Assembly: GCF_010723305.1 (NCBI RefSeq)
Contig: NZ_BLKW01000002.1
Coordinates: forward strand, 1,364,001-1,428,000
Source of the DNA: Mycobacterium botniense
Lineage (GTDB): Bacteria; Actinomycetota; Actinomycetes; Mycobacteriales; Mycobacteriaceae
Reading direction: 5' to 3'
DNA length: 64,000 nucleotides
The position numbers and the translations under genes were made by a program. Within the stretch, counting starts at the first letter, position 1; every line of letters begins with the position of its first letter. Of the stretch, positions 1,394 through 14,602 are shown in pieces. The notes below the pieces were generated by a model, which saw only the letters and a list, made by a program, of their open reading frames with translations, did not search any database and had not been told where the DNA came from.

Positions 1394-2680
1394 CTATGAC
1401 GGAGTGGGCGGACCAGGCTGAGGCGGGCCCGAACTGGGTGCACCCGGATGGGGCCGACTGGGACTTGGCGGACTGCGTTTGCGCGGGCCCTGATCCGGCG
1501 GCACGTCATGATGCAGTTCGGGCAGCTTCTCGGTCTGGGCCTCCGCGCCGGGGACGGGTTCCTCGGACGGCCCCCGGTACAAGCCGTAGTCGGTGCCATC
1601 CAGACCGGGGCTGAGCAGCGCGGCTTCGGTGCGCAGGCTAAACGATCCGAGCAGCACACCGCCGATCAGCGCGACCAGTCCGGCCGCGGTGAAGGTGATC
1701 GGCAAAACCCGCGACCACAGGGCCAACCGGTCACGCTCGTCGCGTGCGGCATTGACCTGGGATTCGACAGTGTCTTCGTTGGTGGTGACCTTGTAGTCGG
1801 CCACCGCCACCTCCGGCTTCAGCGGATCGCGGGCGAAGTAGTGGTTGGCGTGCACCTCTTCTTTGACGATGGTGCCGGACACCGGGTCTACCCAGAAGGT
1901 CCGCTGCGCGGCGTAGTAGCGGGTCATGGTGATCTTCTCGTCCGGGTCGTCGCCGCCGATCCCCCACATCGCTGCGGATGCGGTGACTTTGCCGTCCTCG
2001 TCGTGGGCGTACAGCGACGGATATTTGACCGGGTCGACCAGTTTGCCGTCGGCGTCGTAGCCGACGTTTTGACTGAAGCGGTAGGTGGTCAAGCCGTTGA
2101 CGTCGTCTTCGCCCTCGTAGTTGGCGTCGAAAGCCTTCTGCGCGATGGGATCGAAGTACGGGTAAGTCTTTTTCTGGGTGTGGAAGGGGAACCGATAGTC
2201 CAGCCCTTCGTGCGGCAGCGCGATGTTGGTGGGCGGATTCTCGTCGCCGACGGTGCGTGGCTTCTGCACGGCCCCGCCGGGGTGGGTTTCGTCGGACACC
2301 GCCATCGCCGTTTTACGGTTGAGCGTGACCGTGTCGACCATGGCCAGCAGCAGACCGGTGTCCTTCTGCTTATCGGTGCGCCGGACCGACGTTCCGACCT
2401 GCAGGGTGACGACATCGGCGTTGGCCGGGGATTCGACGGTGATCTGCTGTTGCGATACCAACGGCACATTTTTGTCGACGACGAAATGGTCGCTGGATAA
2501 CGAGGCGGGGTCGAGAGCGGTTCCGCTGCCGTCGCTGATCAGTGTGGTGTCGATGTCGAGCGGGATCTTGGTGATTTTGCTGGTGGTATAGGTCCACAGC
2601 AAGACTGCGGCGATGAGCAGGGCGGCCCCGAGTCCCATAATTCCGCACGCGGCGATCCGCAACATGACTGCTCGGTTCAC
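1394..2680 (-). CDS. DUF3068 (PorA-family) membrane protein, Rv0227c type
   Basis: The 428-residue protein has an N-terminal membrane anchor (CGIMGLGAALLIAAVLLWTY), a long extracytoplasmic domain and a second membrane segment near the C terminus (LPITFTAAGLVALIGGVLLG), followed by a Pro-rich cytoplasmic-looking tail. This is the DUF3068 architecture, an actinobacterial envelope family annotated in Pfam as PorA-like; the reaction or partner is not established. The start is set at GTG 2680 because AAGGAGGT lies 8 bases upstream. The same frame stays open to 2773, but that extension is charged and unlike a signal region. The gene is followed closely by the Rv0226c-type gene and diverges from the acyltransferase gene. 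Confidence 0.88.
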   Translation of the reverse strand: MNRAVMLRIAACGIMGLGAALLIAAVLLWTYTTSKITKIPLDIDTTLISDGSGTALDPASLSSDHFVVDKNVPLVSQQQITVESPANADVVTLQVGTSVRRTDKQKDTGLLLAMVDTVTLNRKTAMAVSDETHPGGAVQKPRTVGDENPPTNIALPHEGLDYRFPFHTQKKTYPYFDPIAQKAFDANYEGEDDVNGLTTYRFSQNVGYDADGKLVDPVKYPSLYAHDEDGKVTASAAMWGIGGDDPDEKITMTRYYAAQRTFWVDPVSGTIVKEEVHANHYFARDPLKPEVAVADYKVTTNEDTVESQVNAARDERDRLALWSRVLPITFTAAGLVALIGGVLLGSFSLRTEAALLSPGLDGTDYGLYRGPSEEPVPGAEAQTEKLPELHHDVPPDQGPRKRSPPSPSRPHPGAPSSGPPQPGPPTPS

Positions 2681-2872
2681 GTTGCCGTGACCTCCTTCTG
2701 GTCGGTGACCGCCCAGCTTCTCGTCGCGACCATGCGAGGTGGCAGCGAGGCGAAACCCGTTTGACCCTAACAAGCGAATTTAAGGCGACCGTTTACTGGA
2801 TCGAGTGCCGGTTTGGCAGCCAACCGCCGGACCCGTCACCATGCCTGCGGTGAGCTCTGTGGAGGTACCGGT

Positions 2873-4081
2873 TTGTCCGCTCGTAGCGCACGGCAGACTG
2901 TGGTCGTGACCGATGGCCCGCCGGTCGGGGGCGCCCGCGGCTTCCTGCCCGCAGTCGAAGGGATGCGCGCCTGCGCGGCCATCGGGGTGGTCGTTACCCA
3001 CGTCGCGTTTCAGACCGGCCATTCCACCGGTGTCACCGGCCGGCTGTTCGGGCGTTTCGACCTTGCTGTGGCGGTTTTCTTCACGTTGTCGGGATTTTTG
3101 TTATGGCGCGGGCACGCCGCGGCCGTCCGAGGCTTTGGTTCACGGCCGGCCACCGGCCGCTATGTGCGCTCGCGGGCGGTGCGCATCCTGCCGGCCTACG
3201 TGGTGGCCGTCATCGTGATCCTCAGCCTGCTGCCTGATGCTGACCACGCCAGCCTGACGGTGTGGCTGGCGAACCTGTCGCTCACCCAGATCTATGTCCC
3301 GCTCACCCTGACCGCCGGTCTGACGCAGATGTGGAGTCTGTGCGTCGAAGTCAGCTTCTATCTGGCATTACCTGTTCTTGCTTTGGCCGCGCGCCAGATT
3401 CCGGTGCATGCCCGGGTACCGGCGATCACCGCTGTCGCGGTCGCGAGCTGGGCCTGGGGCTGGGTCCCGTTCGGGTCGCCGTCCGGGCAGAACCCGCTGA
3501 CCTGGCCACCGGCGTTTTTCTCCTGGTTCGCCGCGGGGATGCTGCTGGCGGAGTGGACCTACAGCCCTGTCGGGTTCCCGCATCGCTTGGCGCGGCGGCG
3601 CGTGGTGATGGGTGGGGCCGCGGTGATCGCTTATCTGGTGGCGGCCTCCCCACTGGCGGGTCCTGCGGGTCTGGTGCCCAGCACCGCGACCCAGTTCGCG
3701 GTGAAAACGGCGATGGGCGCCGTGGTGGCGTTCGCCCTGGTCGCACCGTTGGTGCTGGAGCGGCCCGGGACCGGCCATCGGCTGCTGGCGTCGCCCGGCA
3801 TGGTGACGCTGGGGCGGTGGTCCTACGGTGTGTTCATCTGGCATTTGGCGGCACTGACGATGGTGTTCCCGGTGATCGGGCGATTCGCGTTCAGTGGTGG
3901 CATGCCTATCGTTTTCGCGTTGACGCTGGTCTTCAGTATCGCAATCGCTGCGGTCAGCTATGCCCTTGTCGAGTCGCCATGCCGGGAAGCGTTGCGCCGC
4001 TGGGAGTTCCGCAGACACCAGTCAATGTCTGCACCAGAGGCGGACGCCAGAGAGGCGCAAGAGAACGCCATTGCGCCGTGA
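2873..4081 (+). CDS. Acyltransferase-3 family membrane O-acyltransferase, Rv0228 type
   Basis: The protein of about 402 residues has roughly ten membrane helices and acyltransferase-3 signatures: the N-terminal EGMRACAAIGVVVTHVAF with the conserved His, FTLSGFLLWRG, and SLCVEVSFYLALPVL with the conserved Glu. Such enzymes move acyl groups onto sugars or lipids across the membrane. The corynebacterial member at this locus has been described as the trehalose-mycolate acetyltransferase TmaT; applying that here is inference. I chose TTG 2873 because GGAGG sits 7 bases upstream. ATG 2813 and GTG 2900 are in frame and possible. It diverges from the DUF3068 gene, so both may serve envelope lipid assembly. 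Confidence 0.85.
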   Translation: MSARSARQTVVVTDGPPVGGARGFLPAVEGMRACAAIGVVVTHVAFQTGHSTGVTGRLFGRFDLAVAVFFTLSGFLLWRGHAAAVRGFGSRPATGRYVRSRAVRILPAYVVAVIVILSLLPDADHASLTVWLANLSLTQIYVPLTLTAGLTQMWSLCVEVSFYLALPVLALAARQIPVHARVPAITAVAVASWAWGWVPFGSPSGQNPLTWPPAFFSWFAAGMLLAEWTYSPVGFPHRLARRRVVMGGAAVIAYLVAASPLAGPAGLVPSTATQFAVKTAMGAVVAFALVAPLVLERPGTGHRLLASPGMVTLGRWSYGVFIWHLAALTMVFPVIGRFAFSGGMPIVFALTLVFSIAIAAVSYALVESPCREALRRWEFRRHQSMSAPEADAREAQENAIAP

Positions 4082-11831: not shown

Positions 11832-12404
11832 TTATTTCTGGTCGCGGGGTAGCCGGCAGCCGGTGGAACCGGAGACCACCAGGTTGCCCCGGTAGCCGAC
11901 CTTGATGAACAGCCCGGCCGGACCGTAAAAACCCACATCATGGTTTGCCGGCCCGTTTTGCATGACCTGAACCTCGGTGGCCTCCAGTTTGGCGGCCGCC
12001 TGTTTGGCGGCCTCCTGAATTTTGGCCCAGTCCTGCTCAGACACTACGACATTCTCCGCGACCGCGCGGGGGAAAAAGTATTCCCGCCCGTCGCTTTGTT
12101 CGTAGGGCCGCGCGCAGGTACTGCTGCCCGAGCCTTCGTTGAGGGTTTCCCAGCTGATGGCGGGGATGAGTGTGCTGGCGGCCGTTTTGATCTCATCGAT
12201 GGCGGCTTGCACCTGGGCTTGGGTGTCCTGCAGCGAAGGCAGGGATTTGAGCACCTCGAGGGCCTTGGCGGCCACCGAGGGTGGGGTGTGGTCATAAGGT
12301 CCTGTCACGTGACATCCTGCGGCGGTGAGGGTGGTGGTGAATAGGGCGGCACCCAGCAATCTGTGGTGTCGCCGGCGCGGGGGAGGGTCAGCGGGTTTCT
12401 TCAC
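11832..12404 (-). CDS. LppA-family lipoprotein
   Basis: The 190-residue protein has a basic N terminus, a hydrophobic stretch and the lipobox LTAAGC (Cys31), marking a lipid-anchored exported protein. The C-terminal NLVVSGSTGCRLP and the overall layout match the LppA/LppB family of M. tuberculosis (Rv2543/Rv2544), whose function is unknown. Its ATG overlaps the stop of the upstream hydrolase gene by 4 bases, so it is the last gene of a three-gene operon. I recall that LppA in M. tuberculosis also lies beside an alpha/beta hydrolase (Rv2542), which supports a conserved module. Confidence 0.8.
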   Translation of the reverse strand: MKKPADPPPRRRHHRLLGAALFTTTLTAAGCHVTGPYDHTPPSVAAKALEVLKSLPSLQDTQAQVQAAIDEIKTAASTLIPAISWETLNEGSGSSTCARPYEQSDGREYFFPRAVAENVVVSEQDWAKIQEAAKQAAAKLEATEVQVMQNGPANHDVGFYGPAGLFIKVGYRGNLVVSGSTGCRLPRDQK

Positions 12405-14257
12405 TGGCCGGCAACCGCCTTATCACCCAGCCCGGCCACCACGGCGGCGATGTTGTAGTTGGTGGTCCGGATCCCCCCGTCGTCGGGAAAACGCGGGTAG
12501 TCGCCGTGGCCGTGCGCGCCCTCCAGCTGCAGGGTGCCGCCGTGGCCGTCGGGAACGGTGGTGGCGCCGGTGGCCAGGCGGGTGAAGGCGGGGTTGGTGG
12601 CCGGGTTGGGCCCGAAATGCCCGGCGCCGGTGGCGTCGGCGCCGCCGACGATACCTTCGGCGATGGTGTTGAACGGCGGCGGCAAAAACGGGGCCACATC
12701 ATGGGCGATACGCGGGCCGTCGTAGGTCCACTGGATGAGATCGTCGGGGGTTTCCATGGCGAACACCTGGCCCGGTTGCAGGTGCAACTGGGCCGGCGTG
12801 GATGCTTCGACGCCGGGTGAGCCGTAAAACAGCGCCCGCGACACCCCGTGCTCACCGGGCTGCTGCAACGCCAGCCCGGTCGTGAGCGAGCCGTAGGAGT
12901 GCCCGATCGCGGTCAGATCGGCCCGCCCGCCCTGGTGGGAGGCTTGTATCCCGTCGTAGAAGCGGGCCAGGTCATGCGCGCCGGCGCGGGCCAGGGTGTC
13001 GTGGCTGACATCCCACGCGCCGGCCAGGGACTCACCGGTGTTATCGAAGCCGGGCACCTGCGGGGCGTCATAGCCGATCCAGGCGATCGCCGACACGCTG
13101 TCGTTCCCGTGGCCGGGGGTGAGGCTCAGCTGGCGAAGCGTTTCGCCCCTGAGGCGATTTGCTTCGTCGGCCATGGTCTCGATGCTGCCGTGCACGGTGG
13201 TGTTGAGCCCGGGGGCGGTGACCGACACGTGGGTGGCGGTGTCGGGGTCCCCGACGGCGATCGCGGCGTGGACTTGTTTGCCGGTTTGGGTGTCCAGCAG
13301 CATCAGTTTGCGATCCGGGCCGGCTTTGAGGGCTTTGTCGACCGCCTGCAGATCGGGCAGGTTTTTCGCGGCGTTTCGGGCGGCGTCGTAGCGCCGCTGC
13401 CAGGCCTCATAGGCCAGCCGGTCGGTAAAGATCGCGCCCGGCTCGTTGGGAGGCGGAATATTTTTGCCCTGCGCCCAGTCGGGGTGCTGGGCTTGCAGCG
13501 CGTCGGCTTGCGCGGCGGCGGCCCGGGCGCGCGCCAGCTGGTCATCAAGATTGAGCCGGTTGTAGTGGTCGTAGCCGAGGTGGTCCGGGGGATCGCAGGG
13601 CATCCCGGGATGGTTGCCGATGTTGTGGTCTTGGGCGTAGAGCCAGTCTTTTTCTTCCGGGGTCAGCTGATTCCACAGCGCGGTGAACTGCTGCGGATCC
13701 TCGGGCAGGGGTTTAGACAGCGCCTCTTGAATCTCGGGGCGATTCTCGTGGGGGCCGGCCGGGATGGGAGCATCGCCGTCGGCCATGTTGATCGCCGCCG
13801 CCAAATCCGCGTCGACCGCGGTCGCCTCGGCCACGATCGCGTTCAGCCGTGGCTGCAGCTGGGCTTGCGCTGCGGCCAGCTGCTTGTCGTCGCCGCGGAA
13901 ACCCGACCCGGCCACCACCGTGTTGGCCAGCGGATCGATCCATAGACCCATCTCGGCGGCATCAGCGCGCAACCGGCGCAACTCGCCCTGCACCTTATCG
14001 ATGCCGTCGGCGGCTTTGCCCGCCGCGGCGCCCACCGCCAGCGCCTCGTTGCCATGCGCATCAAGGTCCTGGCGGATCAGCGCATTGTGGTGTTTGCGGG
14101 CCGCAGCGGTTTGGCCCTCCCAGGTGTCAAACACCGCCAACGAGGACAGCTGACGCGACACCTCCACGGTGGCCTGCCCGCGCGCGGTGGCCGCGTGAAA
14201 CACCGCCCGCACCGCATCCGAGCTCCACCGATCAATATCGGCCACCGTCAGCGCCAC
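12401..14257 (-). CDS. Alpha/beta hydrolase with N-terminal WxG-like helical domain (DUF1023 type)
   Basis: The 618-residue protein has two parts. Residues 1 to about 150 are Ala-rich helices with a WEG motif at 46-48 (VFDTWEGQTAAARKHH), like the helix-turn-helix hairpin of type VII secretion substrates. Residues from about 310 form an alpha/beta hydrolase of the DUF1023 type with nucleophile elbow GHSYGS (Ser454); a catalytic His is likely in GAHGHGDYP near the C terminus. No signal peptide is present. The gene starts 3 bases after the stop of a small WXG-like gene and overlaps the LppA-like gene by 4 bases. I infer an esterase or lipase-like enzyme sent out through an ESX-type system. The substrate is unknown. 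Confidence 0.85.
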   Translation of the reverse strand: MALTVADIDRWSSDAVRAVFHAATARGQATVEVSRQLSSLAVFDTWEGQTAAARKHHNALIRQDLDAHGNEALAVGAAAGKAADGIDKVQGELRRLRADAAEMGLWIDPLANTVVAGSGFRGDDKQLAAAQAQLQPRLNAIVAEATAVDADLAAAINMADGDAPIPAGPHENRPEIQEALSKPLPEDPQQFTALWNQLTPEEKDWLYAQDHNIGNHPGMPCDPPDHLGYDHYNRLNLDDQLARARAAAAQADALQAQHPDWAQGKNIPPPNEPGAIFTDRLAYEAWQRRYDAARNAAKNLPDLQAVDKALKAGPDRKLMLLDTQTGKQVHAAIAVGDPDTATHVSVTAPGLNTTVHGSIETMADEANRLRGETLRQLSLTPGHGNDSVSAIAWIGYDAPQVPGFDNTGESLAGAWDVSHDTLARAGAHDLARFYDGIQASHQGGRADLTAIGHSYGSLTTGLALQQPGEHGVSRALFYGSPGVEASTPAQLHLQPGQVFAMETPDDLIQWTYDGPRIAHDVAPFLPPPFNTIAEGIVGGADATGAGHFGPNPATNPAFTRLATGATTVPDGHGGTLQLEGAHGHGDYPRFPDDGGIRTTNYNIAAVVAGLGDKAVAGQ

Positions 14258-14260
14258 GGC

Positions 14261-14602
14261 TCACCCCCGGCCCACACCGGCCACCCGATCGGCATCCCCG
14301 CCGACCGCACGCAACCGCTGGGCGTTCTCACGCTCCATCGCCGCGAAATCGATGGCGTCATTGTGCAGATCCAGCGCGTGCGCACCGACGTCGGTCAGCA
14401 GCCGCCGCGAGCTCTGCCCCCACCGGTCCATGCGGGCGGCCAGCGCCGCCGCCGACGCCCCCACCCAACCGGACTGCGCGGCCTCGATCGCGTTATCCGA
14501 CGTGAGATGCGCCGCCGCCAAGTCCTCCCCCTGCCCGCTGACATGCGCCGCCGAGCACACCAACGCCTCCAGGTCAACCCGGAATTCGCCCGCCACCGCC
14601 AT
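14261..14602 (-). CDS. Small WXG100/EspC-like protein, putative type VII secretion partner
   Basis: The 113-residue protein from ATG 14602 is helical and Ala-rich, with VDLEALVCSAAHVSGQGEDL followed by SGWVGASAAALAARM, a WxG turn at mid-protein as in WXG100/EspC-type proteins. The C-terminal region has FAAME, a loose form of the YxxxD/E export signal. The open frame extends to 14749 but residues before this ATG look non-coding. The hydrolase gene follows after 3 bases. I infer that it pairs with the hydrolase N-terminal hairpin for ESX export; no dedicated ESX machinery is next to it. Confidence 0.7.
   Translation of the reverse strand: MAVAGEFRVDLEALVCSAAHVSGQGEDLAAAHLTSDNAIEAAQSGWVGASAAALAARMDRWGQSSRRLLTDVGAHALDLHNDAIDFAAMERENAQRLRAVGGDADRVAGVGRG

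What the first reader, a model, noticed from the sequence alone, without database searches (positions are those of the whole stretch)
11832..14602. Three-gene type VII-like cassette: WXG-like protein, WxG-headed hydrolase and LppA lipoprotein
The genes are packed with 3-base spacing and a 4-base overlap, so they act together. Both the 113-residue protein (SGWVGA) and the 618-residue hydrolase (DTWEG at 46-48) have WxG hairpins, as expected for a pair exported by an ESX system, and the hydrolase has an intact GHSYGS nucleophile. The third gene is a lipid-anchored LppA protein that could receive or block it. M. tuberculosis has a related pairing at Rv2542/lppA by my recollection. The cassette interrupts the Rv0235c-aftD order, so it is accessory. 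A toxin-like or lipase effector with an immunity or docking lipoprotein is conceivable.
Basis: partly seen in the sequence, partly recalled or inferred. Interest (0 to 1): 0.7.

Follow-up and report, generated by a model that had tools for sequence, protein, structure and literature searches.

The report
Mycobacterial lipase-toxin cassette with immunity lipoprotein
Three neighbouring mycobacterial genes look like an exportable weapon kit (a carrier protein, a probable lipid-cutting toxin and a membrane-anchored antidote), which suggests a job for a lipoprotein family of unknown function that the tuberculosis germ also has.

Summary
The three genes are real and intact: a WXG100 protein (113 aa), a 618-aa protein (WxG helical head, linker, Abhydrolase_8 domain) and an LppA-family lipoprotein (190 aa). 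They sit between aftD and a lipase-maturation-factor gene; in a 29-genome sample that junction lacks the cassette in 19 of 19 measurable cases.

Comparison makes this a polymorphic toxin-immunity cassette. In relatives the same head carries TNT, nuclease and RNase domains, and the same hydrolase plus LppA rides on two other heads, once inside an ESX locus. Over 33 loci the small WXG protein co-varies with the head (partial r 0.54) and the lipoprotein with the hydrolase (0.85), not crosswise. In a close relative, toxin tail and LppA were replaced together, and the old tail with its LppA remains downstream.

Closest known kind: WXG100-toxin-immunity (PEST) cassettes of M. abscessus prophages; two prophage records examined show the same gene order with a hydrolase toxin and a lipoprotein. 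S. aureus TslA/TilA is the experimental analogue.

Export, lipid target and neutralisation are inferred. Four of 51 full-length hydrolases lack an adjacent lipoprotein, and 13 of 51 lack a detectable WXG partner.

The parts
14261..14602 (-). WXG100 partner, 113 aa (delivery module)
   Evidence: PF06013 E 2.9e-8; co-varies with the head, partial r 0.54; among 58 aligned partners W in 49, G in 49, and an acidic residue at position 5 of the F/Y/H-xxx-D/E signal in 56
12401..14257 (-). 618-aa polymorphic toxin: head, linker, alpha/beta hydrolase
13733..14257 (-). WxG helical head, residues 1-175 (delivery module), shared with other toxin domains
   Evidence: alignment A1; 244 of 396 genus genomes; TNT, GH-E, CdiA_C_tRNase, RNAse_A_bac payloads; model confidence low (pLDDT 56-67) at residues 21-70
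12728..13279 (-). Abhydrolase_8 domain match, residues 327-510
12890..12904 (-). GHSYG nucleophile motif, residues 452-456
   Evidence: Ser454 in 51 of 51 full-length relatives; candidate partners Asp506 50 of 51, His584 51 of 51
12404..12817 (-). variable toxin tail, residues 481-618, the part exchanged with LppA in L001
   Evidence: 35-72% identity in 40-residue windows against L001, where most of 1-480 is 85-100%
11832..12404 (-). LppA-family lipoprotein, 190 aa (payload module, probable immunity protein)
   Evidence: PF16708 E 1.6e-38; co-varies with the hydrolase, partial r 0.85
12312..12314 (-). lipobox cysteine, residue 31 of LppA
   Evidence: invariant in 34 aligned relatives, with C97 and C183

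Best explanation
A chromosomal, ESX-type polymorphic toxin-immunity cassette. The WXG100 protein and the head of the large protein form a helical pair that carries it through an ESX (type VII) system (inferred). Its C-terminal serine hydrolase, of the esterase/lipase kind, acts outside the cytoplasm on lipids of a target envelope, most likely of competing mycobacteria (inferred). The LppA lipoprotein, anchored on the outer face of the producer's membrane, binds the variable part of the hydrolase and blocks it (inferred). Shown here by comparison: the domain make-up, the conserved nucleophile and candidate triad, the sharing of one head among several toxin domains, the co-variation of two modules, and one joint exchange of toxin tail and lipoprotein with the old pair kept as an orphan.
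For: Head shared with TNT, GH-E nuclease, CdiA_C_tRNase and RNAse_A_bac domains (4 of 8 non-hydrolase representatives scanned). Lipobox in the downstream partner of 45 of 55 hydrolase payloads against 1 of 26 others. Lipoprotein follows hydrolase and WXG partner follows head; holds inside each lipoprotein family. L001: tail and LppA changed together, old tail (91%) plus old LppA (81%) displaced downstream. Remnant, tandem and lone LppA copies. Same hydrolase plus LppA on head PF22905 and on a third head, in L010 between eccC and two WXG100 genes. Homologous WXG - 'polymorphic toxin' - 'LppA lipoprotein' order in two prophage records. Triad candidates conserved.
Against: Four of 51 full-length hydrolases have no lipoprotein beside them (L022, L088, L111, L140), two of them at the same aftD-LMF junction; in the own genome the hydrolase at L159 (without this head) has none directly downstream either. 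13 of 51 hydrolase and 8 of 26 other proteins have no detectable WXG partner. One lipoprotein precedes its hydrolase (L202) and one stands alone (L201). Abhydrolase_8 is found in 34 of 41 genomes but LppA in 11. In the second lipoprotein family a weak residual correlation with the head remains (0.17, p 0.026). The co-variation test is not corrected for genome phylogeny beyond using the head as control. Secretion, toxicity, substrate and binding are untested; the head model is of low confidence around the WxG turn.
Confidence: 0.72

Rival explanations
1. An exported lipase for the cell's own use: the ESX-exported hydrolase remodels or harvests envelope or environmental lipids, and LppA is a lipid-anchored chaperone or docking site, not an antidote.
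For: Fold matches are generic esterases, cutinases and lipases; tight pairing of hydrolase and lipoprotein would also fit a dedicated chaperone; the prophage papers leave the roles open.
Against: The head carries cytotoxic domains elsewhere; lipoprotein copies occur in tandem (three in L203, two in the own genome), behind a toxin remnant (L200) and alone (L201), which a chaperone or dock would not need; exchange is tail-specific.
Confidence: 0.15
2. Toxin-immunity cassette aimed at host or protozoan cells rather than bacteria, LppA protecting the producer from its own enzyme.
For: The same head carries TNT domains, a domain named after a host-killing toxin; the prophage authors list host-directed action as one option.
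Against: The diversity of tails, orphan payloads and nuclease/RNase domains named after CdiA are usual for conflict between bacteria; nothing here tests the target cell.
Confidence: 0.09
3. A decaying relic without present function.
For: Several relatives carry interrupted or frame-broken copies (L019, L023, L024, L030, L031, L071, L073, L077).
Against: All three window frames are open and Ser454 is kept in 51 of 51 full-length relatives (these were selected for the GHSYG motif, but all 4 hydrolase-type proteins without it are truncated).
Confidence: 0.04

Closest known systems
PEST cassettes (WXG100 - polymorphic toxin - Imm) of M. abscessus prophages (PMC10654092 and PMC8092301, passages; records MW584157.1, MW584173.1)
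   Same: Gene order, small WXG100 partner, WxG head, variable C-terminal toxin domain, co-evolving Imm, some Imm predicted lipoproteins. The prophage toxin has PF06259, aligns to the window protein over 519 residues (31%), matches the head profile (64-65 bits) and its partner the WXG profile (41 bits).
   Different: The window cassette is not in a prophage but between aftD and LMF; a plain search with its head finds no phage record at E 0.01. The prophage lipoprotein, called LppA by the depositors, belongs to the second lipoprotein family and does not match PF16708; homology of the two families is not established.
TslA/TilA of S. aureus (PMC10730906, passages)
   Same: Type VII-secreted lipase toxin, immunity lipoprotein, small helical partners.
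   Different: TslA has the lipase at the N-terminus and the helical domain at the C-terminus; T7SSb; DUF576 lipoprotein. Works like it, not a member.
Tox-ABhydrolase-3 of Zhang et al. 2012 (PMC3482391, passages)
   Same: Alpha/beta hydrolase toxin with GHSxG, listed for Actinobacteria with WXG (T7SS) delivery.
   Different: Listed immunity proteins are Imm66 and Imm69; whether that family equals PF06259 was not tested.
M. tuberculosis LppA, PDB 2V7S
   Same: Matches the LppA-family lipoprotein of a related cassette, L134 (E 1.4e-6).
   Different: Match to the window subfamily profile is weak (E 0.17).

Membership tests
WXG100 - polymorphic toxin - Imm cassette (PEST kind) | small WXG100 gene directly upstream | tested here: met
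   PF06013 over cut-off, 3-base gap
WXG100 - polymorphic toxin - Imm cassette (PEST kind) | toxin with N-terminal WXG-like domain joined to varied C-terminal toxin domains | tested here: met
   81 head proteins, 55 hydrolase and 26 other C-termini; named toxin domains in 4 of 8 non-hydrolase representatives scanned
WXG100 - polymorphic toxin - Imm cassette (PEST kind) | downstream Imm co-evolving with the toxin domain | tested here: met
   partial r 0.85, n=33; 0.77 and 0.62 inside the two families; joint exchange in L001
WXG100 - polymorphic toxin - Imm cassette (PEST kind) | phage-encoded (the P of PEST) | tested here: not met
   lies between aftD and LMF, no phage hit for the head at E 0.01; hence called a chromosomal relative, not a PEST in the strict sense
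WXG100 - polymorphic toxin - Imm cassette (PEST kind) | toxic without Imm | not testable with these tools
   shown in print for two prophage cassettes only
Type VII (ESX) substrate pair | WxG hairpins and YxxxD/E-type signal | tested here: met
   W46/G48 in both proteins; signal position 1 is F in the window (family of 58: F 39, Y 11, H 6), position 5 acidic in 56 of 58
Type VII (ESX) substrate pair | ESX-dependent export | not testable with these tools
   own genome has four EccB genes; no secretion data
LppA family PF16708 | profile match over cut-off and lipobox | tested here: met
   132.5 bits, cut-off 26.4; Cys31 invariant in 34 aligned sequences
Abhydrolase_8 PF06259 serine hydrolase | profile match, nucleophile and candidate triad | tested here: met
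   162.3 bits, cut-off 20.5; S454, D506, H584 conserved; geometry and activity not measured
TslA/TilA lipase toxin system | reverse domain order, lipase first and helical domain last | tested here: not met
   helical head first, hydrolase at 327-510
TslA/TilA lipase toxin system | DUF576 immunity lipoprotein | tested here: not met
   third protein matches PF16708; the only other Pfam row up to E 1 is a weak DUF3253

The most novel reading that the evidence does not exclude
The LppA family as a whole, including the highly diverse lppA/lppB pair of M. tuberculosis, consists of immunity lipoproteins against ESX-exported lipase toxins. Mycobacteria would then use ESX systems for antagonism between cells, and the diversity and recombination of lppB would record toxin-immunity turnover rather than antigenic variation.
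Probability: 0.55. Interest if true: 0.82.

Novelty: new member of a known kind. Interest (0 to 1): 0.62.

Why it matters
It offers a testable function for a lipoprotein family described as confined to pathogenic mycobacteria, with a solved structure (2V7S). In M. tuberculosis lppA and lppB stand out for diversity, recombination and selection (43% of lppB codons), read so far as possibly antigenic (PMC4770551, passages). It also links ESX-type delivery to a lipase toxin with a membrane-anchored antidote, a pairing shown experimentally in S. aureus. The displaced payload in L001 and the two-module behaviour give natural pairs for specificity tests. My searches of the held library (listings, capped at 15 of 35 and 15 of 74 papers) did not turn up a paper that names PF16708 LppA as immunity protein of a lipase toxin; subscription journals and preprints are not covered.

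Tried and rejected
Docking or chaperone role for LppA: kept as a rival, disfavoured by orphan and tandem copies and by the tail-specific exchange. Chance neighbours: rejected. Homology of the two lipoprotein families: not established (hhalign probability 1.1%, E 0.047), although both keep two cysteines 86 residues apart. PDB sequence searches: nothing for the single hydrolase; the profiles of the full protein and of the head gave only weak rows, among them an LXG-domain protein at E 0.077 (8gmh) and many haemoglobins. Single-sequence LppA search hit only designed TIM barrels, taken as chance. The fold list covers mainly residues 304-618 and shows no match for the head; its rows are tied generic esterases, cutinases and lipases, so the substrate is not identified. 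Search with the usher family was a wrong accession and says nothing. An LppA model, a plain Foldseek search, and a WXG-head or hydrolase-LppA complex prediction were not obtained. Rows dropped: 6 of 108 head frames without a usable start or N-terminal part; then 21 of 102 as duplicates, incomplete or under 250 aa; 16 of 49 hydrolase loci lacking one of four parts in the co-variation test; in the site survey 10 of 29 stretches showed no aftD and were not counted. The 80 fetched head loci were chosen from the upper part of the list, which is itself cut and scored only 8 candidates per genome, so payload counts describe this set, not the genus.

Full report

The head is a delivery domain. A profile of residues 1-180 finds a match in 244 of 396 genomes of the genus, with up to 8 per genome (8 candidates per genome were scored). 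I fetched 80 of the listed places and pooled them with 33 loci from a translated search. After dropping unusable frames and duplicates, 81 proteins remain: 55 with the hydrolase (51 full length, 4 truncated) and 26 with other C-termini. Of eight non-hydrolase representatives scanned, four carry a named toxin domain (TNT, GH-E nuclease, CdiA_C_tRNase, RNAse_A_bac) and four (L135, L117, L033, L027) gave no payload match; two further types (L082, L146) were not scanned. The hydrolase therefore stands where toxins stand. A WXG partner is detectable upstream of 38 of 51 full-length hydrolase proteins and 18 of 26 others.

Hydrolase and lipoprotein are a second module. By an automatic rule a lipobox-bearing protein follows 45 of 55 hydrolase payloads and 1 of 26 others (Fisher p 7.5e-12). 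Read one by one, of 51 full-length hydrolases 20 are followed by an LppA-like protein (window and L005 included), 26 by a second lipoprotein family without Pfam match, one (L139) by another lipoprotein, and four (L022, L088, L111, L140) by none. Over 33 loci with all four parts, the lipoprotein follows the hydrolase (partial rank correlation 0.85 given the head, p 0.001) and not the head (-0.07), while the WXG partner follows the head (0.54, p 0.001) and not the hydrolase (0.06). This holds inside each family (LppA 0.77, n=19; second family 0.62, n=26, with a weak residual with the head of 0.17, p 0.026). Window and L014 differ by 65% in the head but 16% in the hydrolase and 28% in the lipoprotein.

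The payload on other heads. In L006, L010 and L013 the same linker, hydrolase and LppA follow a different head, PF22905 Hydro_N_hd; L011 has a third, WXG-like head with a small gene before it. In L010 (M. attenuatum) hydrolase and LppA lie between eccC (TIGR03924 and TIGR03925) and two genes with sub-cut-off WXG100 matches, that is inside an ESX locus.

A natural exchange. L001, from the relative whose LMF is closest among those compared (85%), has a WXG protein 89% and toxin residues 1-437 91% identical to the window; its tail 438-618 is 64% identical (35-72% in 40-residue windows from 481) and its LppA 44%. Directly downstream lie an orphan toxin tail 91% identical to window residues 437-618 and a second LppA 81% identical to the window's. 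Tail and lipoprotein were thus replaced together and the old pair was kept. L200 shows an LppA behind a remnant of a toxin tail, L203 three tandem LppA behind one toxin, L201 a lone LppA, L202 an LppA upstream of its hydrolase. In 41 genomes LppA occurs 20 times in 11 genomes, all of this genus, 17 times directly behind a hydrolase or in a tandem array there; the hydrolase family occurs in 34 of 41. In the own genome all three LppA copies follow a hydrolase, two of them in tandem, while one further hydrolase (L159) has no lipoprotein directly downstream.

Location. Of 60 genus genomes 30, the window's included, have a strong LMF match. For the 29 others aftD was found beside LMF in 19, none with the cassette (gap 2-1249 bp, 14 of 19 at most 168 bp); 10 showed no aftD in the fetched stretch. 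Four hand-picked relatives are also empty (90-328 bp). Three genomes found through the head search hold hydrolase cassettes at this junction: L016 with a second-family lipoprotein, L088 and L111 without one. The G+C of the three genes (63-72%) brackets that of the window (65.7%) and gives no clear sign of foreign origin.

Mechanism (inferred). The WXG protein pairs with the head and the pair leaves through an ESX system: of 58 aligned partners W and G of the WxG are kept in 49 each, and position 5 of the F/Y/H-xxx-D/E signal is acidic in 56; the own genome has four EccB genes, one 328 bp beyond the window. Which ESX system is not known. The hydrolase attacks lipids outside the cytoplasm. LppA, lipid-anchored and with two further invariant cysteines, blocks it on the producer. 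The place of the antidote fits the payload: lipid-anchored for the hydrolase, without lipobox for nearly all other payloads.

What is known. WXG100-toxin-Imm cassettes of M. abscessus prophages are described, and two were toxic to M. smegmatis without their Imm (PMC10654092, passages); several Imm are predicted lipoproteins (PMC8092301, passages). Of four prophage records with a hydrolase match I examined two: both list WXG, 'polymorphic toxin' and 'LppA lipoprotein' genes in order. The toxin of one has PF06259 and aligns to the window protein over 519 residues at 31%, head included; its lipoprotein belongs to the second family, not PF16708. Alpha/beta hydrolase toxins with WXG delivery were listed in 2012 (PMC3482391, passages). 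TslA with TilA is the experimental analogue (PMC10730906, passages). The window cassette is thus a chromosomal member of a known kind. What my searches did not turn up (listings) is PF16708 LppA named as immunity protein of a lipase toxin. That matters because M. tuberculosis lppA and lppB stand out for diversity, recombination and selection, read so far as possibly antigenic (PMC4770551, passages).

Noticed in passing
L010:1119-10765: A hydrolase with head PF22905 and its LppA lie between eccC and two WXG100-like genes, inside an ESX locus.
   Followed up: partly
G021:C49:28486-37458 and G011:C1:4624002-4630859: Very long open frames (4,997 and 4,292 residues) hold six and four listed Abhydrolase_8 matches.
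   Followed up: no
L024:6001-9542: The hydrolase frame is interrupted by two opposite-strand genes that look like an insertion element (not searched), while the LppA-like gene behind it is open.
   Followed up: no
L088:802-2442 and L111:835-2460: Hydrolase toxins at the same aftD-LMF junction with GHSYG kept but no lipoprotein gene beside them.
   Followed up: partly
L117:3200-4282 and 2618-3184: A glycine-rich C-terminus without Pfam match on the same head, followed by a protein with a match to Lpp-LpqN but no lipobox found; six such proteins form one cluster, one of which (L121) the lipobox rule did flag.
   Followed up: no
window 11832-12404: A public entry of this LppA (P0001) is called at 158 aa and several relatives at 157 aa, which would leave out the signal peptide and lipobox.
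   Followed up: no
window right end (G000:C2:1428328): An EccB gene begins 328 bp beyond the window; ESX-3 by position, recalled.
   Followed up: no
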